From: Capitulum mitella
Lineage: Eukaryota; Arthropoda; Thecostraca; Pollicipedomorpha; Pollicipedidae
Length of the DNA: 64,000 nucleotides
Reading direction: 5' to 3'
NCBI GenBank assembly: GCA_030062745.1
Contig: CP099847.1
Coordinates: 1,348,304-1,412,303 of the forward strand
Shown here: positions 807 to 54,931 of the stretch, one piece after another
Layout of the letters: every line of letters begins with the position of its first letter
How positions within the stretch are numbered: position 1 is the stretch's first letter
Made by a program: the position numbers and the translations under genes
Notes under the pieces: model-generated
Databases searched by the model: none
Told to the model about the DNA's origin: nothing
What the model saw: the letters and a program-made list of their open reading frames with translations, nothing else

Positions 807-866
807 AAAAAATGCCGGCGGAAAACGGAGTATAAAACGGGCTTCGCCGTATCTGGAGGGTCATTT
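807..866 (+). promoter_or_regulatory. Core promoter of gene 1
   Basis: TATAAAA lies at 831-837. TCATTT at 861-866 fits the arthropod initiator TCAKTY, with its A 32 bases after the first T of the TATA box, which is normal spacing. A box reading AAAAAT begins at 808, exactly 23 bases before the TATA box, and is followed by GCCGGCGGAAAACGGAG. It is preceded by GCGCG, so the junction resembles an E2F-type site (TTTTTCGCGC on the other strand). The predicted leader is only about 30 bases, with ATG at 893. The same layout is found at genes 3, 4 and 5. Confidence 0.75.
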
Positions 867-892
867 CAGCCGGACCGTTCCGCGGCGCCGAC

Positions 893-2630
893 ATGAGGCC
901 CCTGCTGGTGATCGCCGGTGTGCTGGCCTTCAGCCGCGCTGCACCCGCACCGTGCACGTACGTCGGCCAGCCGGGCTGCCAGGCCGTCCAGCCGGCCGCG
1001 CAGACGGCGCAGACAGCCCAGACGGCCCAAACAGCCCAGACGGCCCAGGCCCAGCAGCCCGTCTACTCGCATTACCCGACGTGGCTCGTGCCAGGCGCCG
1101 GCGCCCAGTTCGCCACCTACCCGGGACTGGTCAGCGGCTACCAGCAGTTCTCACCGAGCGCGGCCGCAGCCGCGTACGGCCTGCAGCCCAGCGTCGCCGC
1201 TCAGCTGGGCTTCAACGCGCAGCCGGCCCTGCCCACGCAGCTCGGCGCCGTCCACCAGGTGGGCGCCGGTGCTCAACTTGGCACCGCTGCCCAGCCGGCG
1301 GCCGGGGCCTACTGGGCCGCGGCCGGCGGAGCGAACCCTGCTGCCGCGGCGCCGGCGGTGCCGGCAGCGCCGGCAGCGGGGCTCCCGACTCAGGGGCTCC
1401 CGGCGCAGGCGCCGGCCGCACCCGCTGCCGGCCAGAGCCAGCTGGGTCTGACGCCAGAGGCCTCGTTCAAGGCGGCCTACGACGCCGAGGTCGCCTTCGA
1501 GCCGACGGCCGCCGCTTCCGTGCGGTCTCCAGTGGTGCAGCCGGCGCCCAACACCATTCCGCAGTCGCAGTCCAAGCCGCAGTCGACGACGCCGACGGAC
1601 GCCGCTCTGAGCAGTAGCATCCTGGACACGATCTCCCAGTTGCTGTCGGCCCTCAACAGGCCGGGTTCGTCGGGCCAGTCGCCGGGCGCGGCGCCGCCGG
1701 CCGCCCAGCAGTCCGGTCAGACGGCCTCTCTGGGTGCGGCCGGCGCGCTCACGCTAGACGCCATCACCCAGCTGCTGGCCTCAGTGCAGCCGGACCTGGC
1801 CAGCCAGCTCGCCTCCGCGCTCTCCGGTGTGAACCAGGCCTCCTCCCAGCCTACCGCCTCAGCCTGCAGCTCAGCCTGCGTACCAGCAGACCGCTCAGCC
1901 TACGTACCAGCCTGCTGCTCAGCCTGCCCCTCAGCCTTCCGCCCGACCTACTTACCACCCTGCTCCTCAGCCTGTTCCTCAACCTGCGTACCAGCCTGCC
2001 GCTCAGCCCGCCCCTCAGCCCGCTCCTCAGCCCGCTCCCCAGTCTGCCGCTCAGCCTGCCGGCCAGCCTGCAGCACAGTCTGGCGCCAAGTCGGCCGAGC
2101 CGTCGGCTTTCCCGGCCGATCTGTTTGCGAAGTGGCTGGAGGCGTCGCAGCCGGACCTGTACTCCAAGTGGGCGCCGAGTGCCTCCGCCGCCGTTCAGGC
2201 CGCTCAGCCTGCTCCGGCAAAGGCCGCCCCAGCCCCTGCCCCAGCTGCAGCCCCGGTCGCTGCTCCTGTTCCAGCCCCGGCCTCGGCTCCGGCCCCAGCC
2301 GCTGCGGCGACACCGACCTCCGTGCCGGCCGGCTCAGCGTACAGCGATTGGTTCCCGGCGCTGACCGCCGCGCAGAGTTCCACTGTGACCGCCGCCCCCG
2401 TCGCCGCCCCCGCCGCTGCCGCCCCCGCCGCTGCCTCCTCCGCCGCTGCTGCCGCCCCCGCCGCCGCTGCCGCCCCAGCCGCCACTGCTGGCCAGCAGCT
2501 GTCTTCTCTCGGCTACGGCGTGTGGCCGGCGTCCGCTGTCGACCTGACCTCGCTGGCGGCGCTGCAGCCGGGCGCCGCCGCGACCTACGCCGACCCGTAC
2601 GCCGCCCTCCAGTACCACGGCTACTGGTAG
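893..2630 (+). CDS. Secreted Ala/Pro/Gln-rich cuticle-like protein (gene 1), one frame break
   Basis: Predicted extracellular structural protein of about 578 residues. Residues 1-16 look like a signal peptide. They are followed by Cys21-x3-Gly25-x3-Cys29, shared with genes 3, 4 and 5, then TAQ repeats (about 36-52), Ala/Pro-rich sequence and an LTPEASFKAAYDAEVAF helix near residue 185 that resembles the cuticle-protein DTPEVAAAK motif. Three segments of the type LDxIxQLLxAxQPDL recur in the middle, then a Gln-Pro-Ala block. The C-terminus is YHGYW. The start is fixed by the TATA-driven leader and the GCCGACATGAGG context. The frame changes near 1857: dropping one C there keeps the Gln-Pro-Ala periodicity unbroken and carries the frame to TAG at 2628. 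Without that, translation runs on in an unlikely Cys/Ser/Arg-rich frame to 2719. The function is inferred; no catalytic domain is visible. Confidence 0.7.
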
Positions 2631-3700
2631 ACGGACCGTCGGCGGCGCGCGGCGTCTCGGCGCCGCGAGCCGACCGCGACGGCCGGCGCCGGCCGCACAA
2701 CGAACGCGCCCAGTGGTGACGTGGTGTGCGAGTGACCGCGCTGGGGCCCAGGTGTTGCCGCTCAGGTGTCCGTAGACCTGCTCCGCGCCGTCGAGTCCGG
2801 CCGAGACCGCGGCCCGATGCGCTAGTGCTGACGCGTCTTGTGTCGGGGGAGGGTGCACTTATCGTGTGTGTATTAATCGGCTCGCCGCCGCCGCATGCTG
2901 CTAGTTCTCGTGAGTTCGGAGGCTGTGTGGATCACAGCGCACGTTACCGCCGTCGCTGCCGCGAGTCGAGCTCGTATAACTGTCCCGATCGAGTCCCGAT
3001 CGGTGGCGCTACGCCGCCCCGATCGGACTCCTGCATAGGTAACCCCCTGGGCCGTGGCATGGCAGTGGCGTCATCCGCGTCTCATTGACTTGATACGCCA
3101 GCAATGACGCCAGCAGAACAGCCATCTGCGATATCCGTCGATATCCTGTAGCCAGAGATTGTGACGTCTTCCTTCTTGTGTTCTTTGGTTCGTCTTACAT
3201 GGTCACGTATTTATATTTGTAGTGTATTTATACATGTGTACAAATACAAACCCCTGCAGGCATTGGTTTTCTTAGTCTTCTTCAGTCAGGACATTAGTAA
3301 AACGTGAGGTTACTAAACACATTAGCAGGCCGTATGCTGTTGCAACGTCTTTCCGCTTCCGAAAATCTTGCCTGGCGAATGAGAGAACTTTTCTCAGTCC
3401 TTTTGCATTTCCAAAGTTGACCGTAATCGCCAGTCAAAAATTATTTAAAATTCGTTAGCGGTAAGCTGCTCATGGCGTTCATGAAGCTGATGAGGCCACT
3501 ACGCACTGGCTGCTACTGAAGTGGAATATGGGGCGCATTCCGTCACTTTTTGCAGTCCATTTTCGACAGGAAATGGTAGCCAAAGTGATTAAAGTCGGGA
3601 GCGATTAAAAGGAGGTTTGAAATATGTGTACATTGCGTAAAAATGGACGCGGGGAGCAGGAATCTGGACGACGATTGTCGCTGGTTGAAATAAAGTCCCC
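2631..3700 (+). other. 3' flank of gene 1
   Basis: GC-rich to about 3070, then AT-rich. It probably holds the 3' UTR of gene 1. AATAAA occurs at 3689-3694, the first canonical polyadenylation signal I noticed downstream, about 1.06 kb after the stop, so its use is uncertain. Near 2985-3032 CCGATCGG recurs in inverted orientation and could form a small hairpin in the transcript. Confidence 0.35.
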
Positions 3701-5469: not shown

Positions 5470-5575
5470 TAGCTTCCAGAAAGCGTTATGGTCGGGCCGG
5501 GTCGGACTGGACCACCTAGTTTTGACGTATTTTTCTGCCAGTTGAAGTAATACTCATCTGGGTTTCGGCCTCATT
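5470..5575 (-). repeat. Dispersed repeat family A, reverse copy
   Basis: On the minus strand this reads GAGGCCGAAAC..., a CTGGCAGAAAAA-like segment, then CCCGGCCCGACCATAACG...TTTCTGGAAGCT. The same order of blocks occurs at 13788-13884, 17699-17783 and twice at 45852-46035. It is a short interspersed repeat of about 100 bases. Its class is unknown; no clear tRNA head or A/B boxes were seen. Confidence 0.55.
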
Positions 5576-5665
5576 CTTAGTAATTTAAGAAATTATGGTT
5601 CTTGTTTCACCACTGTTCATTTTGAATCCCTGGTTTTGGTTTCCGCCCTCGGAGTGACCACCATT

Positions 5666-7234: not shown

Positions 7235-7385
7235 TACTCCTTTTTCTAGGTCTTAGTGGATTTCCCCAGATATGACTATGTATAATGTGAAACAAATTAG
7301 AGTGTATTATAAGGCACCGGAAATCGCAAAAATTTAAAAAGATGCATTGAAAAGATTGATCAGCCGAATGTTGCAAACTTTTCGC
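7235..7385 (-). repeat. Dispersed repeat, inverted copy of 100-240
   Basis: The minus strand matches about 100-240, including CACTCTAATTTGT and the neighbouring blocks. A weaker similarity may exist near 29262-29370. The class is unknown. Confidence 0.4.
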
Positions 7386-8509: not shown

Positions 8510-10698
8510 ATGAGGTGGCTGCCGGCGCTGGTCGTTCTGCTGGCGGCGGCCGGTGGCCTGTCGTTGAGATTCCGGCCGTACGAGGTGGCCGGCAGGCATT
8601 CGCCGGGGCCGCGGCGGCCCGCCTTCGGGCACACGTTCCCCCGGCCGGCGCGTGGCTTCTCCGTGCGCTGGACGAAGACCAAGAAGCTCTTGCAGCTCCC
8701 GCGACGGCTGGTGTTGCCGAAGAAAGCGGCGCCGGCGTCTTTTCATCACGCTGCCGCGCGGCGCAGGGTCCGATTCCCGTCCGTCGTCCCGCGGGAAGCT
8801 CGGCGTCGGCCCTATGTCCGTGGGAAGCCCCGGCAGCCCTCTGCTACTCGCCCTTCCTATTCCCGTCCCTCCCCTCGTCCTTACACTAGTTCTAAGCCTC
8901 ATTACGCTTCACACCCAACCGCCCAGAACACTGGATATAACGTGCCCGTGCTCCGTACTTATGGAGCGCCCTCTGCGCATTCTGTGCAGTCCTATAGCTA
9001 TCCTTACAGTCCCCCTCCCACGAACGTACCTCCTGACGAGCTTTCAACCACCACGGTTCAGCCATTCGATACTTCAACCCATGTTGTGGAGGCCATGACC
9101 ACTACTGAAGAGCCTACAGATGAGCCTGATTCGTCCGAAGAAAGCGAGGATGGAGAGGAGGAGGAGGAGGAGGAGGAGGAGGAGGAGGAGGAGGATGAGG
9201 AGGGAGGAGGAGGAGGAGGAGGAGGAGGGGAAGGAGGACGAGGAGAAGGACGAGGACGAAGAGGAGGATGAGGAGGGGAAGGGAGATGATGAGGAGGTCG
9301 AGGACGAAGAGGAGGACGAAGAGGGAAAAGAGGACGAGGATAAGGATGAAGACAAAGAGGAGGACGAGGAGGGGAAGGACGAGGAGGAGGACGAAGAGGA
9401 GGACGAGGAAGGGAAGGAGGACGAGGAGAAGAATGAGAACGAAGAGGAGGATGAGGAGGGGAAGGGGGACGATGAGGAGGACGAGGAGGAGGACGAAAAG
9501 GAAGACGAGGAGGGGAAGGAGGACGAGGAGGAGGATGAGGACGAAGAGGAGGATGAGAAGGTGAAGGGGGACGAGGAGGGAGACAGAAACCGCCGTCAGT
9601 GCAGAAGTCTTGACGGCAGTAGCTGCTGTCAGCCTGGGCGAAGCGACAGCGGCTCGCGACGACGAAGGAGACACTGATCAGTCGTCCACTGAAGCAGTGG
9701 CCGCCTCCGCGGACGCCACTGCATCTGCTGATGGATTTCGTTACGATGCGGGCTCGGTAACGGCCGGCACTTCAACAGCTGCGGCGGGACTACCTCCTCC
9801 GGAAGCGGCAGACCCCGTCTCTGACCTCGGTCGAGCGGCAGCCGAAGCGACGGCGGCCGTGGTCGGCGACGAGCCGGCCGCCGCTGAGTCACTTCAGTCG
9901 GCGTCGGACTCGGGACTGGCGGACGCGTCCGCCGCGTCCGTCGCTGGGCCGCCTCCCGCCGAGGCGGCAGACGCCGACGCCTCCCTCGCCAAGACGCCGA
10001 CCAATGCAGTGGACGCCGACGCCGTCCTCGCCGAGGCGGCGGCCGAGGCGGCGGACGTCAGCGCCTCCCTCGCCAAGGCGCCGACCAATGCGGCGAACGC
10101 CGACGCCGTCCTCGCCGAGGCGGCAGACGCCGACGCCGTCCTCGCCGAGGCGGCAGACGCCGACGCCGTCCTCGCCGAGGCGGCAGACGCCGACGCCTCC
10201 CTCGACAAGGCGCCGACCAATGCAGTGGACGCCGACGCCGTCCTCGCCGAGGCGGCGGCCGAGGCGGCGGCCGAGGCGGCGGACGTCAGCGCCTCCCTCG
10301 CCGAGGCGGTGGCTGAGGCGGCGAACGCCGACGCCACCCTCGCCAAGGCGCCGACCAATGCGGCAGACGCTGGCGCCAGTCTTGCCGAGGCGGCGGACGC
10401 CGACGCCACCCTCACCGCGGCGTCGGACGCCGATGGCACCCTCGCCGAGTCGTCAGACGCCAGCGGCACCTTCGCCGAGGCGGCGCCGCGGCCCGCCGCG
10501 CGGGACGGCGACAGGGGGGAGTCGGCGGCGGCGGACGGCGACGTCTCGAGGAACCTGACGGCGGCGCTGATCCGGGCCACGGAGGTGCTCAACGAGGCCA
10601 CGTCCGACCTCAACGCCCTCAATGACCAGCCGCCGGCGGCGACAGCGAGCCGAGTGGACGGCGCGCCGGCGAGGCCGGCGGACGGTCGCCGTTTGTAG
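8510..10698 (+). CDS. Secreted basic-acidic protein with Glu/Asp block and Ala/Asp repeats (gene 2), two frame breaks
   Basis: Predicted secreted protein of about 728 residues if two frame breaks are bridged. Residues 1-18 look like a signal peptide. Then come an Arg/Lys-rich region (to about 110), a Pro/Ser/Tyr/Thr-rich region, an SSEESEDGEEEE entry into a Glu/Asp block (about 208-356), a long array of AEAADADAVL/APTNAVDADAVL repeats and a tail with NLTAAL and a short amphipathic helix. No cysteine was seen in the N-terminal or repeat regions. The design recalls acidic extracellular proteins that bind calcium or mineral, but I recognise no specific family. Frame 8510-9202 continues at 9204-9578 and then 9580-10698, each time skipping one G in an identical GAGGAGGGAG (9197-9206 and 9573-9582). 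Unbridged, the first frame stops at 9271 after a Gly-rich run. Confidence 0.6.
9151..9260 (+). repeat. GGA/GAG microsatellite within gene 2
   Basis: An almost pure (GGA)n tract, followed to about 9580 by imperfect GAG/GAC/GAT repeats. It encodes the acidic block of gene 2. Such tracts change length easily and are prone to sequencing indels, which bears on the two frame breaks in this gene. Confidence 0.85.
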
Positions 10699-19963: not shown

Positions 19964-21482
19964 CTACAGGTGGTTTCCGTGCACGATGTACGGGCCGTAG
20001 GCCAGTGGCTGTCCGAAGTACTCGAGCCCGTAGCGGGGCTGGGGGGCGGTCCGGAAGGCGGCAGTGGGCAGCGCCACGCCGCGGTCGAAGTTGGTCGCCA
20101 CCACCTGGTTGCCGTCCAGGGTGGCCAGAAGCTGGAGTTTGGGGGCCGAGGCCAGTCCGGCGCCGCTCAGACGGCCGCTGTAGCCCAGACCGGCGGCCGC
20201 CTCCAGGCTGGGGCCGTAGCTGAGGTACGACGTAGGCCTCACGCTGGGGACGTACCTGTTGGAGACGGGGCGGGAGACGCGTACGGGACCGGCAGCAGGG
20301 AAGCTGGCGTCGAAGCCCACCCGGTGGACACCGCCGATCGAGTTCCGCCCAGCGACGTAGCCCGCGTCCACTGTGTAACCGAGAGAAGCCGGACGGCCGC
20401 CGGCGTGGCCCGCGCGAGCGGTGGCGCCTCTGGCGGCGGGACGGCGCGTCCCGGCGGCGGGGCCCGGGGAGGCGTCGTGGCGCCGGCTGCTCGCGGTGTG
20501 GGCGCGGTCGACCGGTGCCCCGCTCCCGCCGGTGGCAGGTCCCGGGCTGGGCGCCGGCGCGTAGGCGATGCACTGGCCCAGGGAGAGGTCCGTGTACGCC
20601 GGTGACGGGGTCTGCGGCGCCGGAGCGGGGTCGGCGGCGGGGGAGGATGTCGGGCCGCCGTCTGTTGTGGGGCTGCCCGCCGCGTGTCCGGTGGTGCCGG
20701 CTGAAGTTTCGCCCGTGCCACCGGCGGGGGGCAGGTCGAGCGTGTTGGTGGCCAGGGCGGGATCTGCGGAGGCGCCGTGTCCTGCAGCAGGATCCACGGC
20801 GGCACCGGATCCTGCAGCAGGATCCACGGGGGCACCGGGTCCAGGGGCAGGATCCACGGACGCACCGGGCCCCGTCGTGGGCCCCACGGAGACGTTTGGG
20901 CCTAGAGGTGTGTTCATTCCAGCGTTAACACCCGCAGCTTGATTTGCACCTGCATGAGCACTAGGAATCTCATTCGCGGCTGCTGTGGCTGCAGGATGCT
21001 GGTTCGCTGTTGTCACGGCGCCCGGTTGCGGCTGGTTCATTGTTTCTGCGGCCCCCAGAGGCTGGTTCGCTGCTGCTGCACCTCCTGGAGGCTGCTCCGC
21101 CGCTGTGTTGGCGCCCGGTGCGGGCCGGCTGCCGCCGGCGGCGCCGGAGGCTGACCCGGCGGCGGCGCTCCCGGTGCGCCGGGCGCTCGCCGCGCGCCGG
21201 GCGGCTATGGCGCGCCTGGCGGCCACGTTGGCGGCCACGGCGGCGTTGTACGAGGCCAGGAAGTGGGCCTTGGCGGCGGACACCTCCGGCGTGTCCTGCA
21301 CGGGCCCGGGCGTGGCGTGGGCCGGCGGCGGCGACGGCCAGCGCCCGCACCTGGGCGTCCTGAGGGTCGGCGGGGCCGCCGTCCGGCTGCGGCCCGCAGA
21401 GGCTGCCGCCGTACCGCCGGCACTGCAGGGTGGCGGCCGCGGCCGCCGACAGCAGCGCGGCCAACACCAGCGGACGCCTCAT
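19964..21482 (-). CDS. Secreted Ala/Pro/Gly-rich cuticle-like protein (gene 3), micro-intron or one frame break
   Basis: Predicted extracellular matrix protein. Residues 1-18 form a signal peptide, followed by Cys21-x3-Gly25-x3-Cys29. The DTPEVSAAKAHFLASYNAAVA helix that follows is the closest match here to the arthropod cuticle motif DTPEVAAAKAxHxAAxxAA. Next come Ala/Pro/Asn-rich repeats, four PG-x-x-VDPA-type units, and a Gly/Tyr/Ser-rich C-terminal domain ending in HGNHL (TAG at 19964-19966). The signal-peptide frame (from 21482) and the main frame differ by +1. Two explanations fit. One is a 55-base intron 21296-21350 (CAG|GTGCGG ... GTGCAG|GACACG), giving 487 residues. The other is one surplus base near 21321-21324; dropping it gives an AVAAAAHATPGPVQDTPEV-type join and 505 residues. 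The second reads more naturally, since the 55-base stretch lacks a pyrimidine tract. Confidence 0.7.
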
Positions 21483-21535: not shown

Positions 21536-21566
21536 TTATATAGCGCACTTTCGCCGGCGATTTTTG
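21536..21566 (-). promoter_or_regulatory. Core promoter of gene 3
   Basis: On the minus strand TATATAA occupies 21542-21536. AAAAAT occupies 21565-21560, so its first base is 23 bases upstream of the TATA box, with CGCCGGCGAAAGTGCGC between. The initiator is weak. ATG at 21482 has the context GCCAGCATGAGG. Confidence 0.72.
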
Positions 21567-23110
21567 GGGGCGAATGGGGCGCGAATGAGTGTGTCAGGAC
21601 CGGTCCGGTGCAGAATCGGGCATATGTCGAAGGCGCACAATCGAGCGACGCGATCTCGCTGCAGGAAAGATGATCGTCCCCGACCGGACGCACGCCGTTG
21701 GCGTGGCCCGTTACCGTGCGTGCCCTTGCATTCTCTTCTGACCGAAGGAGAATGTGGTGCGCCTCGGCGCTGCAACGGGGTGGGGCAACGGTCCATATGT
21801 GGGCAGCCTTGGATGTCGTCGCCTGCCTCGAAATATGGAAATGCTAGCGGTCCTGAATGGACAGGTGACGGGAAGAATCTAGGCCTCGTATCGCAAAGCA
21901 ATGAGCTTTGAACAATGAGCTTTGAAATTTTTTAGCTTTCATCCGACTAAATATTTTTCTTTACTTTTGGCGATCGTGGAATGCGCGGTCTTATTTGTGT
22001 GGTTTGTAGCCGGGGATTTTAAGTCTTTTGCGAATGGGTGTGGTCAACACTTTCCTTGGTTTGTTTGTGATAGATATTTGATAATGGATTTCCCCCGGTT
22101 CCTAAATGGACCATTTTTTAATATCGTCACTGTTTCTCAGCGACGGATGTAAGAAAGCTTATTTCTCATATCTGGAAAAGAGTGGGAGGAGAACTAAGAC
22201 CCTCTTGTCTGCTTGTATGAGTTGATGTGTTTCGCGTGACTGGGATATAAATCTGTGTACTCCTATGAAATCTGAACTCCTTTTGGTCCAGTAAAAGAAA
22301 AGTAATTTCTTGCTCAGGTTGGCCGATGGAGATAACTAACTACTTCGATGTTACCCTTTTCCTTCTCATGTCTTGAAAAATAACCTGATGCCATTCTGTT
22401 TCAGGTAAGCTTCTCCCTTCCATGGGCGTGGGGATAGTATGGAAGGCTTATTTGGACGGCGAGGGCCTGATGCCTACGTGAGTACTAAGGTCATCGCACA
22501 TTCGTTCACGGTTATACATTCATTGGTACCGCGTGGTTGCTATGCGGCTCAAGCTAACTTGTGTGGTAAATATTTTGTCGTTGCCAACTTGTTCCCAAAC
22601 CATTTCCGAAGGAAGAAAACATTTTTTGGAGGCATTTTGTAGGTTAAACACTTCGACGTGAAAATGATGAACTGGGGCTTACTCAGGCATTCCAAGGATA
22701 ATGTGCGTAATTTGTGATGACCAAACCTACTGTTTTTACTTCCTCACCACTCATGAACGCGGGGTGTCGCAACGACAAAGCTGATGCTCGGGGACGCCGT
22801 TCCCGATTGATCAAGCTTCGTCATGTAAAAGAGTGTTACTCAGAACTCTGTAGTGTCCTACTGACCGGGTTCAGCACATATCTCCGGTGACCGTTCGTTC
22901 ACCGAGCCTGCGTCATTAAATACAGACAGAATTGCGGAGGGATTTTCCGAAGTACGATGACGGCTACCCCTCGAAACGAAGGATTTAGCTCGCCAAGCCC
23001 GAAGATGCTTTGAAAGGCGCCTGCTGTGCAGGTAACGGTTGCCCGTTCACAAGGAATGCAACTTTTACGTGCGATGTCGTAAGCTGAATGAGTCTTAAGC
23101 CCTGATTATA

Positions 23111-31476: not shown

Positions 31477-32353
31477 TGTATATATGGAGATGGCATAAAA
31501 ATAGAGATAAACCCAATAACTCTTATTTTTTAGGGCCCCAGGTCGCAAAACAGTGTTCCAAATCCGGTGAGAAATCCGCATTTGGGGGTAGATTTTGTTT
31601 GTATCCCTGAATGCATTCCCAACCGAAAACATAAATTTCCACCCCTGGCGCATGTTTAATCATTGAGCCGGATAGCGTCCTTAAATCAAATCACAGAAGA
31701 AATACGATGCTGTAGTAGCAAGAATGACACATGCAAGTATTTCTTACAGCGACACCACATTTCCCCGTACGTGGTAGTACTCGCTGTCTCTGCGGAGAAT
31801 CTCAGACATTATTGCGGTAACAGCAGCGTAATTCATACAGATTGTAGCTCATTGAAACTACTTATTCGTACAAGTAAGCGAACTATGACGTCGTTCTGTT
31901 AGCAGGAGAGCGTTTGAGGAAAATGGGGGAGCGAAATAACATTTCCTCTGCTTTCGATGAAGTGTATAGTGACGCTAAGATCAGTTCGGATGTCCTTTCG
32001 TGTTAGATGCCGATCTGCTGAACTGGTTTCCTACCGTAAAGCATCTTTGTTTTTGCGAAATGGTTTCATGGATTTTGAATAACAAATTGGTTGGCGCATG
32101 CACTGGCCAAACGAAAAGACTGGCTGATGATCGTGTATGATCCAACGTTGATGTAGTTTATTTGTTTTGCAAGGGATGATCGATACGGATTCTACAAATG
32201 GTGCACTAAAATGAGTCTGGCTGTTGGTGCACGGAAACATTTGCATCGTGGGTTTAATGAGTATACAGCTGTTACATGTAAAGCTTCTTTTTCTATTTTA
32301 TACATCCGCTCGCCTATGATTTTTTACAACCTGAAACCCGTGTCACGCCAATG
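31477..32353. other. Intergenic, no recognised feature
   Basis: AT-rich; nothing recognised. Confidence 0.35.
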
Positions 32354-33573
32354 TTAACCCGCCCCCGACTGGGGAGCAGTTGACCGCCCCCCCCCCTGTG
32401 GTTTTTGTGGGATTGCGAGAGAACGAACAAACACAGAGCCACGAAACTTTGTGTACCTTTTGCCTGATCATTTTTACACCTTGTGTCAAAGTTTTGACCT
32501 CAGGTCAGGTCAGGTGCCTGACCTAGGTCAGGTCAAACAGACCTATGTCCAAAAAAGTTTAGCGCCCTCTAACTTTTTCGTAAAACAAGATATCTCAATA
32601 ATACTTTCAGGGATTAGTGATCGTGATAGATTCAACAAATCTGCTATCTCAGATTTTTCGGAATTTTCCGGGTCATTGATCTAAGGTCAAGCCCATTTTT
32701 ATGACATATCGCCGTCTTTTCGGAAATTAACGGGATATTTCGTAACATTTTTAGTGTGGAGTGAAGCAGACATCTAGTTACCGTCATTGGGCAAAGTATC
32801 AATGACTTCCAGCCATTGACCTGAGGTCAGGTCACGAATAACTGTAGTGAGCCAAGATGTACCGCCTCCAAAATCAGCGATGAATTACTCAGAATGGGCA
32901 CAAAATGGCAGAACTGGCTTGCACAGACGCAAGTAGTACCAGGAACCCCAAAAAGTGTGAAAAATTGCATATTTTGGAAATAAACGGGCTCTCGCGAATA
33001 AAGCTCCGCCAGTTGTGTAGGTTGGTAACTATTGAATTTTTCCAAAATTGAAGCATGAAAAACCATCACAAGAACCACTGAGATCAATAAAATTTACATG
33101 GATAGGCTTTTTTCGCAAAAATAAAGGAACACTAAAATTAGCTTCCGTTAATTTCTTACTGCATGCGGCTGCGGCGCACACGGACAGCCGGCCCGAAAAC
33201 TGCCGTGTCTTTAACTCAACGTTTCGGCGTATATATTGAACAAATCCGAGAAATTAGATGTGCATTTGCAGACCTTTACTTGTGCGCTGGTGCCTTTACC
33301 TATGCGTTATTAGTCACAGCCCTTGAGATTCAGGCCATTTCTTGGTCTCATGCAGTAGGCTATGAGAAAACATATATAGGACGTAAATTGCTTACATATT
33401 ATCTAAATCTAAGAAATCAGACCAGTTTCGAGCTCTACTCGTCACAGGCTTTCGAATGGTGTGCTTATTTTTATCGTGCGACCAACCGTTCGTGAGTTAG
33501 AGGGGGGCGGCCAGCCGCCCCCTCCCCCCAGTCGGGCATGATCGTAACCGGCCGACGGTCGTGCCCGGGTTAA
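32354..33573. mobile_element. piggyBac-like non-autonomous element flanked by TTAA
   Basis: TTAA at 32354-32357 and 33570-33573 flank a 1,212-bp element. The left end reads TTAACCCGCCCCCGACTGGGG. The right end on the opposite strand begins TTAACCCGGGCACG and reaches GCCCGACTGGGG about 36 bases in, so the left end seems to have lost an internal segment. TTAA duplication with CCC termini fits the piggyBac superfamily. No transposase was seen. The interior contains two near-identical clusters of AGGTCA half-sites (32495-32535 and 32817-32834). Confidence 0.6.
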
Positions 33574-38591: not shown

Positions 38592-40040
38592 CTACCAGCG
38601 GTAGCCGGGGTGACTGTAGAAGCCGAGTCCCAGGTTGCTGTAGCCCAGAGACGGGTAGTAGCCGCCCAGGAAGGCTGGGGCCAAGCCGGCCGTGTTCAGG
38701 CCGCCGTTGGCCGCCAGCGCTGCCGCCGCATCCGCCACCGACGTCACCGCCGCGGGAGCCGGAGCCGCGGCCGAAGCCGGAGCCGAAGCCGCAGCCGGAG
38801 CCGCGGCTGGGGCCGGGGCCGCGGCCGGGGCCGGGGCCGCGGCGGCCGCTACAGGCGCCGGCACGGCGGCCAGGGCGGCCACTGCGGCGGCCGGCTGCGG
38901 TGCGCTGTGCGAACTGTAGCTGGAGGCGGCCGCGGTCGGCTCCGGCTCGGGTGTCGGCTCCGGCTCGGGCGTGTAGCCGGCGGTCTTGGCGGCGGCCGCG
39001 GCCGCGGCGGCCACCGCCTGGTCGAAGGCGGCCTGGAAGCGCGCCTTGGCGGCTACCACGTCCGGCGTGTCCGTCGGCGCCTGCAGCGTGTGCGCCGCCG
39101 TCGACGACGGCGGCTGGTAGGCGGCGGGCGCTGGGCTTGGAGATGGAGCGTAGGCCGGCGCCGGCGCTGGGGCTGGGGCTGGAGCTGGAGCATAAGCCGC
39201 TGGTGCTGGGGCCGGAGCATAAGCCGGTGGTGGAGCCGATGCGTAAGCCGTCACTTGACCTGGTGCTGATGCATAGCCTGGAGCTGGGGCATAAGCCGGT
39301 GCTGGAGCAGGAGCCGGAGCGTAAGCTGGTGCTGGGGCTGGAGCCGGGGCATAAGTAGGTGCCGGAGCTGGAGCTGGTGCTGGGGCATAACCGGGTGCGG
39401 GGGCTACAGCCGGAGCATAAGCTGGTGCTGGGGCAGGCGCTGGAGCATAAGCTGGTGCTGGGGCAGGCGCTGGAGCATAAGCTTGCGCTGGGGCCTGAGC
39501 TGGAGCATAAGCTGGTGCTGGGGCCGGTGCTGGAGCATAAGCTTGCGCTGGGGCCGGAGCTGGAGCATAAGCTGGTGCTTGGGCCGGTGCTGGAGCATAA
39601 GCTTGCGCTGGGGCCGGTGCTGGAGCATAAGCTGGTGCTGGGGCTTGCGCTGGAGCATAAGCTTGCGCTGGGGCCGGAGCTTGGGCATAAGCTGGTGCTG
39701 GAGCGGGGGCTGGAGCATAAGCTGGCACCGGGGTTGGTGCTGGTGCTGGCGCCGATGCTGCCGCAGGAGCTGGAGCGGCTGCCGCAGCTGCAGGAACCGC
39801 GGCCGCGGCTGGAGCCGTCGCCGCTGCGGCCGGCGCTGCGGCGGCAGCCAGAAGGGCGGTTGTGGTCGGGTCAGAGGCTGCCACCAGCGGCCACTGGGTC
39901 ACGTACTGGTACGGGTTGTAGGTGCCGTAGACGCCCGACCCGAGAAGGGTGGCGCAGTACTGGTAGCCGTACAGCTGGCACTGCCATGGCAGACCGCACG
40001 CCACGGAGAGCACACTGACAAACACCGGCAGGAGCCTCAT
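38592..40040 (-). CDS. Secreted Ala/Pro-rich cuticle-like protein with AYAPAPAP repeats (gene 4)
   Basis: The only gene here with a single intact frame, 482 residues. Residues 1-16 are a signal peptide (MRLLPVFVSVLSVACG). Cys21-x3-Gly25-x3-Cys29 follows with a Tyr-rich N-terminus, then Ala runs and about 200 residues of AYAPAPAPAP/AYAPAQAPA repeats. The TPDVVAAKARFQAAFDQAVA helix resembles the cuticle motif DTPEVAAAK. TPEPEP repeats and further Ala/Pro sequence precede a Gly/Tyr/Leu-rich C-terminus ending GYRW (stop 38592-38594). The ATG at 40038-40040 is chosen over the upstream in-frame ATG because a TATA box lies 53-60 bases before it and a signal peptide starts there. The likely role is as an extracellular structural (cuticle or shell matrix) component; no enzymatic domain is visible. 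Confidence 0.8.
   Translation of the reverse strand: MRLLPVFVSVLSVACGLPWQCQLYGYQYCATLLGSGVYGTYNPYQYVTQWPLVAASDPTTTALLAAAAAPAAAATAPAAAAVPAAAAAAPAPAAASAPAPAPTPVPAYAPAPAPAPAYAQAPAPAQAYAPAQAPAPAYAPAPAPAQAYAPAPAQAPAYAPAPAPAQAYAPAPAPAPAYAPAQAPAQAYAPAPAPAPAYAPAPAPAPAYAPAVAPAPGYAPAPAPAPAPTYAPAPAPAPAYAPAPAPAPAYAPAPGYASAPGQVTAYASAPPPAYAPAPAPAAYAPAPAPAPAPAPAYAPSPSPAPAAYQPPSSTAAHTLQAPTDTPDVVAAKARFQAAFDQAVAAAAAAAAKTAGYTPEPEPTPEPEPTAAASSYSSHSAPQPAAAVAALAAVPAPVAAAAAPAPAAAPAPAAAPAAASAPASAAAPAPAAVTSVADAAAALAANGGLNTAGLAPAFLGGYYPSLGYSNLGLGFYSHPGYRW
39240..39730 (-). repeat. Coding minisatellite of gene 4
   Basis: About 30-60-base units of GCATAAGCTGGTGCTGGGGC on the plus strand, encoding AYAPAPAPAP/AYAPAQAPA on the minus strand. 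Unit-to-unit identity is highest at 39410-39700, which suggests recent expansion. Confidence 0.85.
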
Positions 40041-40065: not shown

Positions 40066-40122
40066 TGTGTGGCCTCGAGCACGACATGCCCGTTTTATAC
40101 CCCACTTTCCTGTGCGATTTTT
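40066..40122 (-). promoter_or_regulatory. Core promoter of gene 4
   Basis: On the minus strand TATAAAA occupies 40099-40093. AAAAAT occupies 40122-40117, exactly 23 bases upstream, with CGCACAGGAAAGTGGGG between. A CACAGTG initiator-like string places the start near 40066. The leader is about 26 bases to the ATG in the context GGCCGACATGAGG, nearly the same as gene 1. Confidence 0.78.
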
Positions 40123-43113
40123 TCTCGCGATAGGATGCCGACTTCGTGCGATGGGACCGGTTCATACAGGCTCACCAGACGATGGCTGGAGCTGCAGGGC
40201 TCGGTCGAAGAAATCAAATGACGGGCACCCGGGCTTCATCACTGCCGCTGAATTTCCAGTCGCCGAGGCAGAGTTTTCTCTCCCAGACCCAGGAAAGTCG
40301 GGGTTTGCCTGGCTGGAAATGGCGTGAGGCTCGTCCAGAATACTTCGTGACGAAGCCCTGTGTTTATATATCACTCATCAAAGGTCGTCCATATTTGGTT
40401 TGGTACGATTTGGTATGCATGTTTTCAAAAGACCTGTAAATAGTCAAGATTTCCCCGGTACTGCCGTCACTGATAAGCATAAATTATTTTCTGGCGCCAT
40501 TTTGCAGACCCTGTAGTTTTTCATGTCCTTACCTTGTCCTGTCTGTCTTATGCCATTTATTTTCTTTATACAACCTGCCTGCTGTCCTCAGTCAAGGCCC
40601 ATGTGGGTTGAGGAATTTGTGTCGATTGCGTTTTGGTCATAGAATACGAATCCTGTCGAATACGTTTTGGTCATAGACCATGTTTTGGTCGTCACACATA
40701 CAGAGCATTGCTGTCATTTGCCATGTGGGGGGCTCCCTTGGCCATCCCTTACATTTCATTGTCCTTAAAACCCTTCTGTGTGCATTGCATTCAGTCTTGC
40801 TAAGCAGTCAGTAAATTTAAGTCTTGTCAGGGGCAGTCCGAAAGCATAAGTTTACCACATAAAACCCAACCACTTCCTTAGTCTTTCGGCATTGACAGGA
40901 ACTGCCAGTGAAATTTCATCTATTCCCGGACTTTGCCGTGGTGATGTGTGGTCGTTTACCTGATATGAAGTTGCGGAACTGATTCGTGTGTTGACGGTGT
41001 GTTATTGGCACAAGGCATATGTCGCGTCAGTGATTGATTTCATCCAGTTATTGATGATCTATGTATGTTTACTCGATACACCTCATTCACAATTTTAGTG
41101 CAGTAATTTTGACGGGTCCAAGATTGTGGGAGAGCATGAACATGCTCTGAAAGAGGATGGACACTCCTGAACCCGAAATTCCCAGAGAAATCGGAGAAGT
41201 TATCTTTTGCTTAATTCGCTACTGTCTACCGAAAATTTTGCAATTATTTGTCCAGTGGCTGTAAAAAATTTTAAAACCCAGCAAGCTCTGTGTACGGGCC
41301 GGGCCACTTAATTCTATTTTTTCCGCTCGTTGAACGAACACGCAGTCGGCTTTCAGCGTCGCTCGTAACCAGGAAGACGCCTGTGGGTGTATACTGAGCG
41401 AGTTATACGTCGTGGCTGCTTTCATCAGCACTCTCCATTATGCGTTTTGCAATACAACGGACTGTTTATCTGTATATGCCAGTATTTTGCATTGGACAAA
41501 TGGGGCGTTCAAATAAAACTCGAACTACCAAATGGTTCTGCGTGCCAAAAATACCATGGACATAAAATATTTCTCATATAGCCATCGAAAAAACCCCGAG
41601 ACATCTGTCGTATATTCCCATTCACGTTTTTATTTTATACATTAGAACTGCATATTCTTGTATGTGCGAAACACACCATAACTGTACGGAGAGCCCACCC
41701 AAGTCATATGGAAACATTGCGACACCGGGGTATTGCTTGAGGGCATTTTCGTCCCCGGGCCATTTTAAAAAGCTTTACTTTGGAGCTAATCTGCTTTTAT
41801 TTGAATGGAGTATTATGGGTGAAATTGCACAGAGAATACTTCCCAAAGATATTTCTTCCTTCCACTTTTTCGCTTTTTTTCATTTTTTCACTTATATTTA
41901 CAGCCGATGACAAGATGCCTCTGAAGAGGTGGAGCCGATGGTGTTTTCTGCTTTGAGGCAACCGAGAATTATGTGCGAACGTTGGGGTCCTCAGTGGCCG
42001 GACATGTGGCGGAACAATATGAAAATGGAACGGTGTCCACAAAATTATTGCTGGTTACGATTGGGATTGCGGGACAGATAAACAGGCCGTTTTTTTCCCA
42101 GCCAATCCAAGACCCAACAATCAACGTAATTCGGTCTCCTCGTAGAACAACCAACGCAGTTCGATCAACTTCCGAAAATTATTAAAAAATATCATGGGAT
42201 TTTAAATTGATTTTTTGAAACATTGTCATGTGCATGATGTTACGGCGTCTTTATGTGTCAGGCCAGACCCTTTCCGGTTGCTTGGCTGTGGTCGAAATGT
42301 TACGATGTCTTAAAAAGATGTCGTCTTTCTAAAATGGTCAGGTCTGCTGGTCTCCTTTCTTTCTCGAATTGCATTTGCGCTTACAGCATTTTCGTTTGCA
42401 TCGGAGAATAGGCTTGTCAGCTCGTTGCCGTGAGTTCATGCGCCCTGTTCCACGGATCAAATGAAATGGAACTTACTGTGTAGACCATTTTCATCATTAC
42501 AATCCTCATAAATTCATTACAATCCTCATTCATCATTACAATCCTCATTTCATCCATCATCTGTGTGTTCCGCACAAATTTCGGCGTTAATGGTTAGACG
42601 TGAATCCCCGAAACGTGCATGCCTGTTTTATTTGTCAAACCAATACTGTAAGTTCCGTTAATCTTGCAAATAAAATTGATTAGACACATCAGAAGGAATG
42701 CACATGTGGATTACAATTCTCCATTGCATGTGCGACACGGCAGGATAGAACTTAGCAAAACTGAAGACGTAGTTGAACTGTCGACTGCACAACCGAACGA
42801 TGCCTAAATGTCAGGCAGTCATTTCACAAACAGCAGCATGACATTCACTTATAAGAAGCTTATTGAAACTTCTTTCACGCTCGCAAGCTCATGTTATCTG
42901 CACTTGCGGAGCACGCCTTGGAATTTGGCATTAATGGAATGTGCCGTAAATAAATCTATGCGCACAGGCCCCATGAACGTTTGATGTAGAATATAATCCC
43001 CGGTACATAACTTGTTTGGTAGGTCTGTCCATGCGATTCTCTGGCGTCAAACAGACGGGAGCATTGCGTTGAGTCAAACAGTCTGTCCCTTTTTCCAAAT
43101 CCCATGAAAACGT
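40123..43113. other. Intergenic with two short tandem repeats
   Basis: CGTTTTGGTCATAGA occurs at 40629-40643 and 40663-40677, with a partial copy at about 40681. CATTACAATCCTCAT occurs three times at 42494-42548. No gene was recognised; the open frames are short and unsupported. Confidence 0.4.
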
Positions 43114-46710: not shown

Positions 46711-48083
46711 CGATTCATGTCGTAATGCGCAAGTGGCTCCAAGAGACTGCAAAAAGGATACCACATCTCAGTGCCTGATGTGAATCGGGGATACGCCACG
46801 CTCCTGAAATACGAATAAAGAGCACACTTAGCTCGCCCCCAACAAACACTGAGTAGCGATTGTGGTATGCAAGTAATGTAGTGAAGTGAAACATTAATGT
46901 CATCGTATTCAGTGCAGGTTACATCCTGAGGGCCAGTTTTCTTGCCCCGGTCAGCGACCTCGAGTCACCGTTTGCTTGATGGCTCATGGCTGTTTGGCAG
47001 TATATAAACCAATAAAGGACTATTTGCCGGTGAAATTATTGGTGTAGATTACGCGGCTTGTCACTTAACAGGTAACTTAAGTGGCAAAAAAATAAACTTG
47101 GAGTGCCTCGCAAGACTCTGGCGTCGGCTGCTCTTTTTTTGTCTTGGGACTTAATGATGAATGCGAATAGGAATGCCTCAGTTTTACGAGCTGTCATTTA
47201 CCGCAGTGACGTGATCTGGCGTTACCGGATCTGATGGGCCATGGCATAGCCAAAAAACAAGAGCCCTTATGGCATGGGATCGTTGGTATGTCAAAGAACA
47301 GTGTGTGATTTGAAATTTTTGTCTAGCTTTTGCCCAGGTTGCGAGAGGGTGCTCTGCCGGTGCTGTTCTCTGCCTCATTGCAAGCCATACAAAATCGATC
47401 TGTCTGGGAGTCGCCATAATGTGTCGTGCTCCGTGCGAAATTTTTGTTCAAACAGAGTGATGAAACGAGCGAGCGACTGAACGCGTTTCTTCAGGCGGCG
47501 GCAGTGTGGTTTTCTGAATGCACCCTTGCTTGCTTGCGTTTCAGGGATTTCCCACAAAGGTCTGCTAGAAGCGAGGCAAATTTGGTGCTAACTTTTGCGT
47601 TAGTGAATTCGTTATTGCGTAGCTTATATTACAGTGGGATGTGACATGTAAAGCCGAGGATACGGAAAATGTCAAACGAAACAAACGCATTCTGCGACAT
47701 CCTCTCTATGTTGCAGATATCAGGTTCGTGCTTAACATTAGTGATGTTGGTGTCAGGCCAGAAGCCGGCGACGAAGCACGTACACGACCCATTTGCTGGA
47801 ATCACAATTTTCAGGGACCGTAACACTAGGGGTTTGTCTAACATAGTGCGATCAGTGTGTGTAATGCATCTAACAGAATTTGCCCGACACTTTGAACATT
47901 TGAGTGGGTTCATTATGCACGGTATTTCGAGCACATGATTTTGCTTCGCATTTACCATATTTCAGCTCATTACATGGGATGACAACGGCATTGTCAGACA
48001 CTGCTTTATATAGAGCGCCTCTCACGATGTCTGCTTCTTGTCATGCATGCTTCGACTACTTTTATTTTGTCTCCAGTACCGGT
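46711..48083. other. Intergenic, no recognised feature
   Basis: AT-rich. TATATAA near 47000 has no AAAAAT partner and no downstream signal-peptide frame, so no gene was called. Confidence 0.35.
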
Positions 48084-48167: not shown

Positions 48168-48389
48168 CTGCCCAGGGAAGTTTGTTGTTTGTTTGAAGCG
48201 TTTTTACAGGCATTCCGGAAAGTGAAGGGAATGTTGCCTTGTGTGTCTTGTTTCTGTAAAAGTTCGTTATTTCGTCAGCGTTTTGAAAAACCTCGCCGCA
48301 TTAATCTTACATTTCCAGAAGAGTTCACTTTAATGGTTTGGTTTTCCATTAATGTGAAGAAGCAGTGGTGGTTTGCACAGCGGTGAAAC

Positions 48390-48510
48390 AGCCAAAAAGT
48401 CCGACTGACAGTTGCTTTGTGCAGGCGAATTAGGAGGTAGAGGAAAAAAATTAAGCGCACCGTTGTGCTCAGCGATTCATGCTCCATAATATGGTTTACT
48501 TTTTAGCTTC
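48390..48510 (+). repeat. Dispersed repeat family D, copy 1
   Basis: ACAGTTGCTTTGTGCAGGCG, then GCACCGTTGTGCTCAGCG and CCATAATATGGTTTACTTTT. The same blocks occur in the same order at 53830-53945. Confidence 0.5.
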
Positions 48511-51132: not shown

Positions 51133-51271
51133 GTCGTTCACAGAAGCGTAGACAGAATTTTGCCAGGGAGAGGGGATAAGTCTAAAATGAAAAGGATTGG
51201 TATTACTCTTACCATTTTATTGCAAACATGGGAAAATTAACCCTACCAAATAACACACCTGCAAATTCCGG

Positions 51272-51315
<44 letters not shown>

Positions 51316-51366
51316 CGGGGTCCATTGACTCCTCTGATCCCATCTGGCTACGCTGCTGGTCATTGA
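51133..51366. mobile_element. hAT-like MITE (copy 2)
   Basis: The element is 51141-51358 (218 bp). The left end reads CAGAAGCGTAGACAGA. The right end on the opposite strand reads CAGCAGCGTAGCCAGA (14 of 16 identical). Flanking octamers GTCGTTCA and GTCATTGA match at 6 of 8. Interior blocks TCTAAAATGA and TTACTCTTACCATTTTA match the copy at 15049-15308. A (TA)n tract at 51274-51312 has expanded inside it. Confidence 0.82.
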
Positions 51367-52992: not shown

Positions 52993-53032
52993 GTGTCTTG
53001 GGTGGTCACCCTTGTGGGATCACCCAAGACAC
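52993..53032. repeat. Inverted repeat, 12-bp perfect stem
   Basis: GTGTCTTGGGTG (52993-53004) pairs with CACCCAAGACAC (53021-53032) around a 16-base loop. Confidence 0.7.
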
Positions 53033-53758
53033 TGAACAGACGAACTGCATCGATGCACTTTGCTCTGCATACTCGTAGATCCTGTTTTGTCTGTTTTCGC
53101 TTGGCGACGTATGAACAGATCCAGGGTGCTGTTTGCTCTCATGGCCACTGAGGCGAATGCCGTTGACCAAAAGGGCCTCTTCTGAACGGTGGACTTAAAG
53201 AAACAAAACGTTGGTTTTGCGAAGTTCCGCCAATACTGTATATGCAGGGCCAGTTTTATGTTTCAGTTTTGGCTTTTCAGTTTTGCAGCGTGAGTTTTGC
53301 TTACAGTGACTTATCAGGCGACCGAAAATTACGCCTAATTCTTCTGTCTGATTGGATCACATCATGCAGGTTTTCCGCCCCATTTTGGTGCGCGTTTGGC
53401 GTTGGCGTTGTCGTATTAAGAAACGTAGACTAGTGCTGTGAGGTAAGATATGTATCGTCCCTAGAAATGCCCTGTTCGGGGTAGAGGAGTTTTGGCCTTG
53501 ACGATACGGCAGACAGCCCGGGCACGTAACTGGGGGTCTTCAAGGGCTCGCCGTCTTTGTTGCACATTCTTTATGAAATGCCAGAAAGTTCCCCAGTTTT
53601 ACGAATAATGCGTGGTTTAGGAAGCTCCGTGCTCCATTTCTTCGAATCGCTCCCGTAACCCTCTCCGAAATCCCGAATCCGTGACTGCGGCGCGAAGATC
53701 TTCCGCGCCCTGGCGTGAGCATACCAGTCATGGTTTTTATGACGGTTTTCTCGGCCGT
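53033..53758. other. Intergenic, no recognised feature
   Basis: Nothing recognised. Confidence 0.35.
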
Positions 53759-53806
53759 TATAAGTTATAAGTTATATATTATATATAAGTTATAAGTTAA
53801 GATAAG
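53759..53806. repeat. TATAAGT short tandem repeat
   Basis: Imperfect TTATAAG units with a central TATATATTATATA. Confidence 0.7.
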
Positions 53807-53829
53807 TTCTCTGGTGAACTTATCCGAAA

Positions 53830-53945
53830 AGGCGGACGGACATTTGCTTAGTACAGGCGAATGACGAGGCTGGGGAATAAGACAAATGCACCTGTGTCCA
53901 TAGCGTCGTGTTCCGTAATATGATTTACTTTTCGTCGTTCGCGTG
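53830..53945 (+). repeat. Dispersed repeat family D, copy 2
   Basis: ACATTTGCTTAGTACAGGCG, GCACCTGTGTCCATAGCG and CCGTAATATGATTTACTTTT match copy 1 at 48390-48510. Confidence 0.5.
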
Positions 53946-54874
53946 CTAGACCTACCCGCTTGGACTCATTCAGACAGTTTTAGGAACAGTGACGCTGTCG
54001 ACAGATCCGACGTTTCATTGCGTCGTGCAGTACACAGCTGTGTTCAGCGCCTCATATTCCGATGTGTCCTTTGCTTTTTGTCTTTCATGTTCTGGGTCCG
54101 TCCGATTGAACTGTTTCATGACAGTACTGCCCAGTGTGATCCAGTGTACGTCAGACGTCAATCTCGCAACATGAACAACCAATGCTAACAAAGTTTGAGG
54201 CCACCTGTGGATAGCGAACAAACAAAGCCATAGGCAAAGCTTGTACACAGACTGCTTTGCCGAAAACTGTTGCAGTCACCGAAACATGGATAAAACGGGC
54301 CAAATGGCACAGCGAACCCTATCTTACGAGCTCACCGTCGTGGAAATGCCCATATGTCTTATCGGGACCGATGCAAATGACCAAAGCATTTCATTATTGT
54401 CACCCCGCCGAGCGCACCACGGCATTTTCATCAGTCAGGCCATTTACGAAGACAAAGCCTGTCGTCACTCCGTGATTATGATCCGAGCTTGCTTCACCAC
54501 GGCCACGTATGGCACGGTGGACAGAAATCGTGAACATGATATGGTGCCACTGCACTGGAGGGTTTCGTCGAACAGCGCCATTTCGCTAGATTTTCGACGT
54601 CGTTTGTTGACTTCGGAGCAGACTTTTCAGCTCCTCAGCCTCGATAATCGCGGGTTACATGTTTCCGAAACAGCTGCCAACTGCTGCGAGAACCATGTGA
54701 CTGTCATTTCCTCAAGCATTCCTCCGACTGACCGGGTACTTAGGCTCGATGCACTTTCGCTGGCTGTCAGTCATGGCCGAGCCGCCTTTCCTGTTGCGAG
54801 TCGGCGCCGGTCCGCGCCGATGCCTGGCATGATGTTCGCCTGTTCGAACCGGTCCGCTCCGCCACGCCGCTGCT
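53946..54874. other. Upstream flank of gene 5
   Basis: GC rises toward gene 5. A 211-codon frame at 54241-54876 (+) has mixed composition but no recognised domain, no promoter and a stop just before the gene 5 TATA box. I regard it as chance or a decayed remnant. Confidence 0.25.
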
Positions 54875-54931
54875 AAAAATTGGTCGTCAACCGTGGTATA
54901 TAACAGGCCGCGTGGCCGCGCCGTACACACT
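54875..54931 (+). promoter_or_regulatory. Core promoter of gene 5
   Basis: TATATAA at 54897-54903 and AAAAAT at 54875-54880, 22 bases upstream (23 at genes 1, 3 and 4), with TGGTCGTCAACCGTGG between. The start site is probably in ACACACTGG near 54929. ATG at 54958 has the context CGGCACCATGAAG. Confidence 0.7.

What the first reader, a model, noticed from the sequence alone, without database searches (positions are those of the whole stretch)
807..54931. Shared AAAAAT-N17-TATA promoter layout in four of five genes
Genes 1, 3, 4 and 5 each carry AAAAAT with its first base 23, 23, 23 and 22 bases upstream of TATAAAA/TATATAA. At genes 1, 3 and 4 the spacer shares a (C)GCC/CAC...GGAAAG/GAAAG-type core. 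Gene 2 has the TATA box but not the upstream box. The rest of the intergenic DNA is diverged, so the fixed spacing suggests one regulatory factor and co-expression. I know of no named element with this exact form. The E2F-like GCGCGAAAAA reading at gene 1 is one possibility.
Basis: partly seen in the sequence, partly recalled or inferred. Interest (0 to 1): 0.78.

Follow-up and report, generated by a model that had tools for sequence, protein, structure and literature searches.

The report
Shared promoter of clustered cuticle-type genes
Neighbouring genes for proteins that look like parts of an arthropod's outer covering share a compact three-part start signal, which suggests, but does not prove, that one regulatory switch turns them on together.

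Summary
AAAAAT lies 23, 23, 23 and 22 nt before TATAWAA at genes 1, 3, 4 and 5. The exact three-box module was found 4 times in the 477-Mb genome, all 4 here (reversed control 0).

AAAAAT-TATA alone is not enriched genome-wide: 1605 copies against 1657 for its reversed control.

The four genes look like one paralogous family: signal-peptide-like start, Cys pair, and a helix block related to the '18-aa motif' of cuticular proteins. Gene 2 lacks these and both boxes. Scanning 280 kb of flanks found one more family gene, 24.6 kb to the left, with the same layout and one mismatch in each upstream box. In 344 kb, five family genes match five modules.

Most likely this is a conserved core promoter of co-regulated cuticle-type genes. 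The ACCGGT box resembles the Grainyhead site (ACCGGTT in 4 of 5). Factor, start sites and expression are inferred. The kind of system is known; my limited paper searches found no description of this module.

The parts
772..779 (+). gene 1 ACCGGT box (AACCGGTCC from 771), 59 nt before TATA
808..813 (+). gene 1 AAAAAT box, 23 nt before TATA
831..837 (+). gene 1 TATAAAA box
861..866 (+). gene 1 initiator-like TCATTT (6 of 6 to TCAKTY; inferred start site)
   Evidence: initiator consensus recalled
893..2719 (+). gene 1 reading frame from ATG; the repetitive part looks coding in another open frame (1833-2630)
1451..1498 (+). gene 1 helix block TPEASFKAAYDAEVAF
21597..21604 (-). gene 3 ACCGGT box (palindrome GGACCGGTCC 21597-21606), 62 nt before TATA
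21560..21565 (-). gene 3 AAAAAT box, 23 nt before TATA
21536..21542 (-). gene 3 TATATAA box
20970..21482 (-). gene 3 reading frame from ATG 21482; the body lies in another open frame (19964-21478)
21230..21277 (-). gene 3 helix block AAKAHFLASYNAAVAA (overlaps the 18-aa motif match from 21301)
40154..40161 (-). gene 4 ACCGGT box (AACCGGTCC 40154-40162), 62 nt before TATA
40117..40122 (-). gene 4 AAAAAT box, 23 nt before TATA
40093..40099 (-). gene 4 TATAAAA box
38592..40040 (-). gene 4 intact coding frame, 482 aa, signal-peptide-like start and AP-rich repeats
39006..39053 (-). gene 4 helix block AAKARFQAAFDQAVAA
54848..54855 (+). gene 5 ACCGGT box (AACCGGTCC from 54847), 49 nt before TATA
54875..54880 (+). 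gene 5 AAAAAT box, 22 nt before TATA
54897..54903 (+). gene 5 TATATAA box
54958..55704 (+). gene 5 reading frame from ATG; the later part looks coding in another open frame (55208-56407)
55390..55437 (+). gene 5 helix block AAKAEFQTAYDAFAAA
8454..8459 (+). gene 2 TATAAG box (not of the family; lacks both upstream boxes at these places), ATG at 8510
32296..32324 (-). decoy: AAAAAT-N16-TATAAAA with no ACCGGTCC

Best explanation
Genes 1, 3, 4 and 5, plus one more gene 24.6 kb left of gene 1, are clustered paralogues that encode secreted, low-complexity, cuticle-type proteins. Each keeps the same compact core promoter: a palindromic ACCGGT box 49-62 nt before TATA, an A-rich box (AAAAAT, in one copy GAAAAT) 22-23 nt before TATA, then TATAWAA and a short leader with the ATG 59-63 nt after the first T of TATA. 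These parts are shown. Inferred: a dimeric factor, most likely Grainyhead (about 0.45), binds the palindrome; a second, unidentified factor binds the A-rich box and the GGAAAGTG-type segment beside it; TBP on TATA fixes the start site about 32 nt downstream; and the genes are switched on together in epidermis when new cuticle is laid down.
For: The exact module is found 4 times in the window and 0 times in 100 shuffles, and 4 times in the whole 477-Mb genome, all here, with a reversed control of 0. AAAAAT position: 0 of 2000 and 0 of 2000 null sets reach 4 of 5. Shared 8-mer ACCGGTCC: 1 of 2000 shuffled sets and 0 of 2000 window sets reach 4 of 5. Boxes are conserved while flanks sit near background: mean pairwise identity 0.83 at AAAAAT, 0.90 at TATA, 0.25 at -120..-66 against 0.28 expected; in up to 1000 nt upstream of -65 no same-strand alignment exceeds the best shuffle, 0 of 10 pairs, gene 2 included. 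Held-out test: the consensus of the four window genes found, as the best off-window place with 2 mismatches, a fifth promoter with an intact ORF of the same family. By these scans, 344 kb hold five family genes and five modules, one to one. The family block from genes 3 and 4 ranks the four genes 1-4 in all six frames of the window (genes 5 and 1: 0 and 3 of 2000 shuffles as good); gene 2 does not match (1075 of 2000). The 18-aa cuticular motif matches genes 3 and 4, 0 of 1000 shuffles each (motif from PMC13073896). ACCGGTT is the GRH site of the Drosophila Ddc promoter, and 42 of 64 cuticle/chitin genes misregulated in fly grh mutants go down, 22 up (PMC3348937 passages). CP2/GRH-type exons lie at three places of this genome.
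Against: No expression, start-site or binding data. The bases 3' of ACCGGT (CC in 4 of 5) are not the GRH consensus TT. Gene 3 has GACCGGTC, two off AACCGGTT, and human GRHL2 loses much binding with one mismatch (PMC13105062 passages). The distance from box 1 to TATA varies (49-62). Among the window genes the initiator is good only at gene 1 (6 of 6; others 3-4 of 6); the extra gene scores 5 of 6 by eye. Neither pair of boxes is enriched genome-wide over its reversed control, so this is a feature of one locus. In 344 kb one further ACCGGT-TATA pair without an A-rich box lies at 48010-48012 (-). Frames of genes 1, 3 and 5 change in the repetitive parts, so some could be pseudogenes. Genes 1 and 5 do not match the 18-aa motif significantly (22 and 79 of 1000 shuffles, and not at the helix block).
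Confidence: 0.75

Rival explanations
1. The boxes are only a relic of gene duplication: paralogues that have not yet lost similarity, with no functional constraint on the boxes.
For: The genes look like paralogues. Identity is also raised in the spacer (0.44) and before the ATG (0.48). Genes 0 and 4 agree at all 30 specified core positions of a pattern that was itself drawn from these two genes.
Against: Flanks between and beyond the boxes are near background, and no same-strand similarity is left upstream of -65. Mature proteins differ strongly by eye. Gene 5 keeps exact boxes while its spacing and spacer have changed.
Confidence: 0.15
2. AAAAAT-N17-TATA is a general promoter element of this genome or a chance of AT-rich DNA.
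For: A decoy lies in the window at 32296, and there are 1605 copies in the genome.
Against: No genome-wide enrichment over the reversed control (1657). All four exact three-box copies found in the genome lie in this one cluster. nulls.
Confidence: 0.03
3. The core was taken over from a dispersed repeat that itself carries AAAAAT-N17-TATAAAA.
For: The repeat has the same box spacing and a GCGCCGAAA-like spacer. Spacer identity to genes 0 and 1 is slightly above shuffles (fraction reaching observed 0.018 and 0.047).
Against: Genes 3, 4 and 5 are not above shuffles (0.22, 0.16, 0.27). Flanks are at background (0.20-0.24 upstream). 0 of the 12 copies read, which I picked by eye from the 100 places listed out of 1605, has ACCGGT at -80..-39.
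Confidence: 0.04
4. The ACCGGT box is bound by a factor other than Grainyhead (another CP2 protein or an unrelated palindrome-binding factor).
For: The 3' CC and gene 3's GGACCGGTCC depart from AACCGGTT. CP2-type exons lie at three places in the genome.
Against: ACCGGTT is present in 4 of 5 family promoters, the core ACCGGT is invariant in 5 of 5, and grh is known to control cuticle genes in flies.
Confidence: 0.5
5. E2F-type site at the A-rich box (GCGCGAAAAA).
For: Present at gene 1.
Against: Absent at the other three window family genes (gene 0 not scanned for it); S-phase control does not fit secreted structural proteins (inference).
Confidence: 0.02

Closest known systems
Drosophila TATA-type effector gene batteries, including Ccp84Aa (PMC7863008, passages read)
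   Same: Short TATA genes in family clusters, often expressed in epidermis, gut and trachea; the authors suggest they may be regulated mainly by promoter-proximal elements.
   Different: The words grainy and Grh do not occur in that main text, and the passages I read describe no three-box module. Here the module is limited to one cluster, and tissue and timing are unknown.
Shared upstream elements of 26 co-expressed Bombyx RR cuticle genes on chromosome 22 (PMC2848646, section 10 and passages read)
   Same: Cuticle genes of one chromosome with common upstream elements taken to explain co-expression.
   Different: Those are 21-41-nt MEME elements within 2 kb, for RR genes, with co-expression measured. 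Here the boxes are TATA-anchored, the protein family is different, and no expression data exist.
Grainyhead site of the Drosophila Ddc promoter, ACCGGTT (PMC3348937, passages read)
   Same: Same palindromic core, at promoters of barrier genes.
   Different: One or two bases off the AACCGGTT optimum at all five genes; binding untested.
18-aa-motif cuticular protein family (PMC13073896 passage; PMC8622913 passages)
   Same: Genes 3 and 4 carry the motif (10 and 11 of 18 identical).
   Different: Genes 0, 1 and 5 keep only a diverged helix block. All five have a Cys pair after the signal-peptide-like start and long low-complexity repeats.

Membership tests
18-aa-motif cuticular proteins | match to PVDTPEVAAAKAAHFAAH | tested here: inconclusive
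   Genes 3 and 4 are significant (0 of 1000 shuffles each); genes 1 and 5 are not (22 and 79 of 1000). A block built from genes 3 and 4 ranks genes 5 and 1 third and fourth in the window; gene 0 ranks fifth in 144 kb with a block from the four window genes.
18-aa-motif cuticular proteins | secreted: N-terminal signal peptide | tested here: inconclusive
   Hydrophobic N-termini of the M[RK]xxxV type in 5 of 5; judged by eye, no signal-peptide program was run.
CPCFC cuticular proteins | C-x5-C repeated two or three times | tested here: not met
   The N-terminal Cys pair has 6 or 7 residues between in 5 of 5.
Grainyhead-regulated promoter | GRH site ACCGGTT / AACCGGTT in the proximal promoter | tested here: inconclusive
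   ACCGGTT in 4 of 5 family promoters, exact AACCGGTT in 0 of 4 window promoters and not at gene 0.
Grainyhead-regulated promoter | a GRH/CP2 protein exists in the genome | tested here: met
   PF04516: 8 matches at three places on C1, C10 and C12, 8 of 8 over the cut-off. Which of them is grainyhead was not determined.
Grainyhead-regulated promoter | binding and grh-dependent expression | not testable with these tools
   Needs gel shift, ChIP or knock-down.
TATA-type core promoter | TATAWAA at a fixed place before the start site | tested here: inconclusive
   TATAWAA 59-63 nt before the ATG in 5 of 5 family genes. Initiator 6 of 6 at gene 1 only among the window genes. Start sites not mapped.

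The most novel reading that the evidence does not exclude
A locus-private three-box promoter code (ACCGGT palindrome, A-rich box, TATA) defines one family of cuticle-type genes: it has been kept nearly letter-perfect across at least five paralogues while proteins and flanks diverged, and it ties each copy to a Grainyhead-class factor, so the cluster acts as a single moult- or shell-growth-timed battery.
Probability: 0.4. Interest if true: 0.5.

Novelty: new member of a known kind. Interest (0 to 1): 0.38.

Why it matters
It would give a small, cleanly bounded set of genes in which a promoter grammar can be tested box by box in a non-model arthropod. It would also link the conserved epidermal regulator Grainyhead to one cuticle-type gene cluster. 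The TATA-AAAAAT pair, taken alone, matters little.

Tried and rejected
AAAAAT-TATA as a genome-wide element: rejected, 1605 against 1657 in the reversed control. ACCGGTCC-TATA as a genome-wide element: 31 places against 91 in the control, 4 of the 31 being the window genes. The tool warns that common words are skipped and counts can be lower bounds. E2F: rejected as a shared element, 1 of 4 window promoters. Repeat origin: not supported. The 32296 match: treated as a decoy. Pfam gave nothing above cut-off for the 10 frames given. A PDB sequence search of gene 4 gave two hits, named AaBgIC (E 0.00064) and P14 (E 0.033), taken as low-complexity matches. 0 tRNA and 0 Rfam matches at gathering score. 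Paper searches: searches returned 0 papers; one search found 2 papers holding 18-aa-like peptides (passages read); some searches gave listings cut at 6-15 rows, from which the papers named here were opened. I saw nothing that describes this module in those listings and passages; PMC8911041 passages added nothing on promoter layout. A genome-wide search for more family members by protein did not complete, so family size outside the 344 kb read is unknown. The organism was not identified: a 477-Mb, 16-contig genome might suit a barnacle, but that is recall, and the passages of PMC8917513 did not settle it.

Weak or unexplained profile hits outside the family: L009:3881-3926 (-), E 0.0016, model positions 17-59, and L031:1542-1572 (+), E 0.12, positions 33-63. 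The next best module places have 3 mismatches, at 32302 (-) and 112575 (+) in window-relative coordinates. One alignment of N-terminal proteins used wrong coordinates for gene 3 and was replaced. One search timed out; its parts were redone.
Full report
CHECK. Genes 1, 3, 4 and 5 carry AAAAAT 23, 23, 23 and 22 nt before TATAWAA. Gene 2 has TATAAG, with its only AAAAAT within 300 nt at -133. When any hexamer at any position was allowed, 0 of 2000 dinucleotide-shuffled promoter sets and 0 of 2000 GC-matched sets reached 4 of 5; the largest values were 3 and 2. Block-wise shuffles of the window, 60 at each of three block sizes, gave at most 1 pattern match, against 5 observed. One of those 5 matches is a decoy at 32296 (-), with no ACCGGTCC.

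WHAT WAS MISSED. The same four promoters hold ACCGGTCC at -59, -62, -62 and -49 from TATA, on the gene's strand in each case. There is no copy elsewhere in the window, against about 1.5 expected in all. The three boxes together match 4 times in the window and 0 times in 100 shuffles. The next best other place has 4 mismatches, or 3 under the wider spacing.

THE GENES. The four genes share a signal-peptide-like start, a Cys pair 6-7 residues apart and a helix block. A block built from genes 3 and 4 ranks all four genes 1-4 in the six-frame window; genes 5 and 1 are matched or beaten by 0 and 3 of 2000 shuffles, gene 2 by 1075 of 2000. Genes 3 and 4 match the published 18-aa cuticular motif at 10 and 11 of 18 positions, 0 of 1000 shuffles each. 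Genes 1 and 5 do not match it significantly, 22 and 79 of 1000, and their best places are not the helix block. The motif was read in a passage of PMC13073896. Filing genes 1 and 5 under that family is therefore inference through the paralogues. Gene 4 is intact; genes 1, 3 and 5 change frame in repetitive parts, which could be assembly error, introns or decay.

HELD-OUT TEST. I fetched 80 kb and then 200 kb of flanks. The consensus from the four window genes found one more place with 2 mismatches in all. It lies at C9:1324576, 24.6 kb left of gene 1, and has the extended core and an intact ORF of the same family. Its upstream boxes are ACCGGTAC and GAAAAT. By these scans the module and the family coincide 5 to 5 in 344 kb. 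Of 7 TATAWA places with ACCGGT upstream in that stretch, 5 are the family genes with AAAAT, and 2 are one overlapping TATA run at 48010-48012 (-) without AAAAT. A profile of the five promoters found no further full match. Two partial hits, L009:3881 (E 0.0016) and L031:1542 (E 0.12), are unexplained, and the five strong hits match by construction.

GENOME. The exact module was found 4 times in 477 Mb, all in this window, with a reversed control of 0. AAAAAT-N15-18-TATAWAA alone occurs 1605 times against 1657 in the control. ACCGGTCC-N36-60-TATAWAA occurs 31 times against 91, 4 of the 31 being these genes. The controls are reversed strings and differ in dinucleotides, so they are rough, and the tool may skip very common words. 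The extended core, a pattern drawn from genes 0 and 4, allowed 3 mismatches and hit only those two genes, control 0.

CONSTRAINT OR RELIC. Mean pairwise identity, anchored on TATA without gaps, is 0.83 at AAAAAT, 0.90 at TATA, 0.44 in the spacer, 0.25-0.37 between -120 and -24, and 0.29-0.33 at +7..+54, with 0.28-0.31 expected from composition. In up to 1000 nt upstream of -65 no same-strand alignment beats the best shuffle, 0 of 10 pairs. This favours selection on the boxes. One opposite-strand match, between the upstream DNA of genes 1 and 2, exceeds shuffles (35 against 26); it lies at window 3-52 on the gene 1 side, far from the boxes, near an inverted pair 142-207 / 7258-7323.

MECHANISM. 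Shown: the boxes, their spacing, their match to the family, and the restriction of the exact module to the cluster. Inferred: a factor on ACCGGT, a second on the A-rich box and the GGAAAGTG side, TBP on TATA, and starts about 32 nt on. Gene 1 has a 6-of-6 initiator; genes 2 to 5 score 3-4 of 6. Grainyhead is my first choice because ACCGGTT is the fly and worm site and fly grh mutants misregulate cuticle genes, 42 of 64 down and 22 up (PMC3348937 passages). ACCGGTT is in 4 of 5 promoters, and CP2-type exons exist in this genome. Against it: the 3' CC, gene 3's variant, and the sharp loss with one mismatch seen for human GRHL2 (PMC13105062 passages).

COMPARISON. TATA-driven family clusters in fly epidermis (PMC7863008 passages) and shared upstream elements of Bombyx cuticle genes (PMC2848646 section 10) are the same kind of thing. 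The listings and passages I saw do not describe this module; that is a limited search of open-licence papers.

VERDICT. Real and more structured than reported, but an ordinary kind: a conserved core promoter in a paralogous cuticle-type gene cluster.

Noticed in passing
G000:C9:1324454-1325718 (L006:6150-7414), outside the window: Extra intact family member with the same promoter layout, 24.6 kb left of gene 1.
   Followed up: yes
L033-L044: A dispersed repeat carries AAAAAT-N17-TATAAAA followed by TGACCTTGACCTGACCTTG-like runs, which resemble nuclear-receptor (FTZ-F1 type) half sites (recalled). 12 copies read, 0 of 12 with ACCGGT at -80..-39.
   Followed up: partly
window 25100-27250: Tract of degenerate repeats of about 20 nt with a GTCTCAGGGGCCCC-like unit.
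   Followed up: no
window 32475-32545: Dense AGGTCA/TGACCT half sites upstream of the decoy.
   Followed up: no
window 893-2719, 19964-21482, 54958-56407: Reading frames of genes 1, 3 and 5 switch frame inside repetitive parts: assembly error, introns or decay.
   Followed up: no
window 8510-10698: Gene 2 is a different secreted-looking protein: Arg/Pro-rich, then a long acidic run, with Ala/Asp repeats in the next open frame.
   Followed up: no
L009:3881-3926 (-) and L031:1542-1572 (+): Partial matches to the promoter profile at E 0.0016 and 0.12.
   Followed up: no
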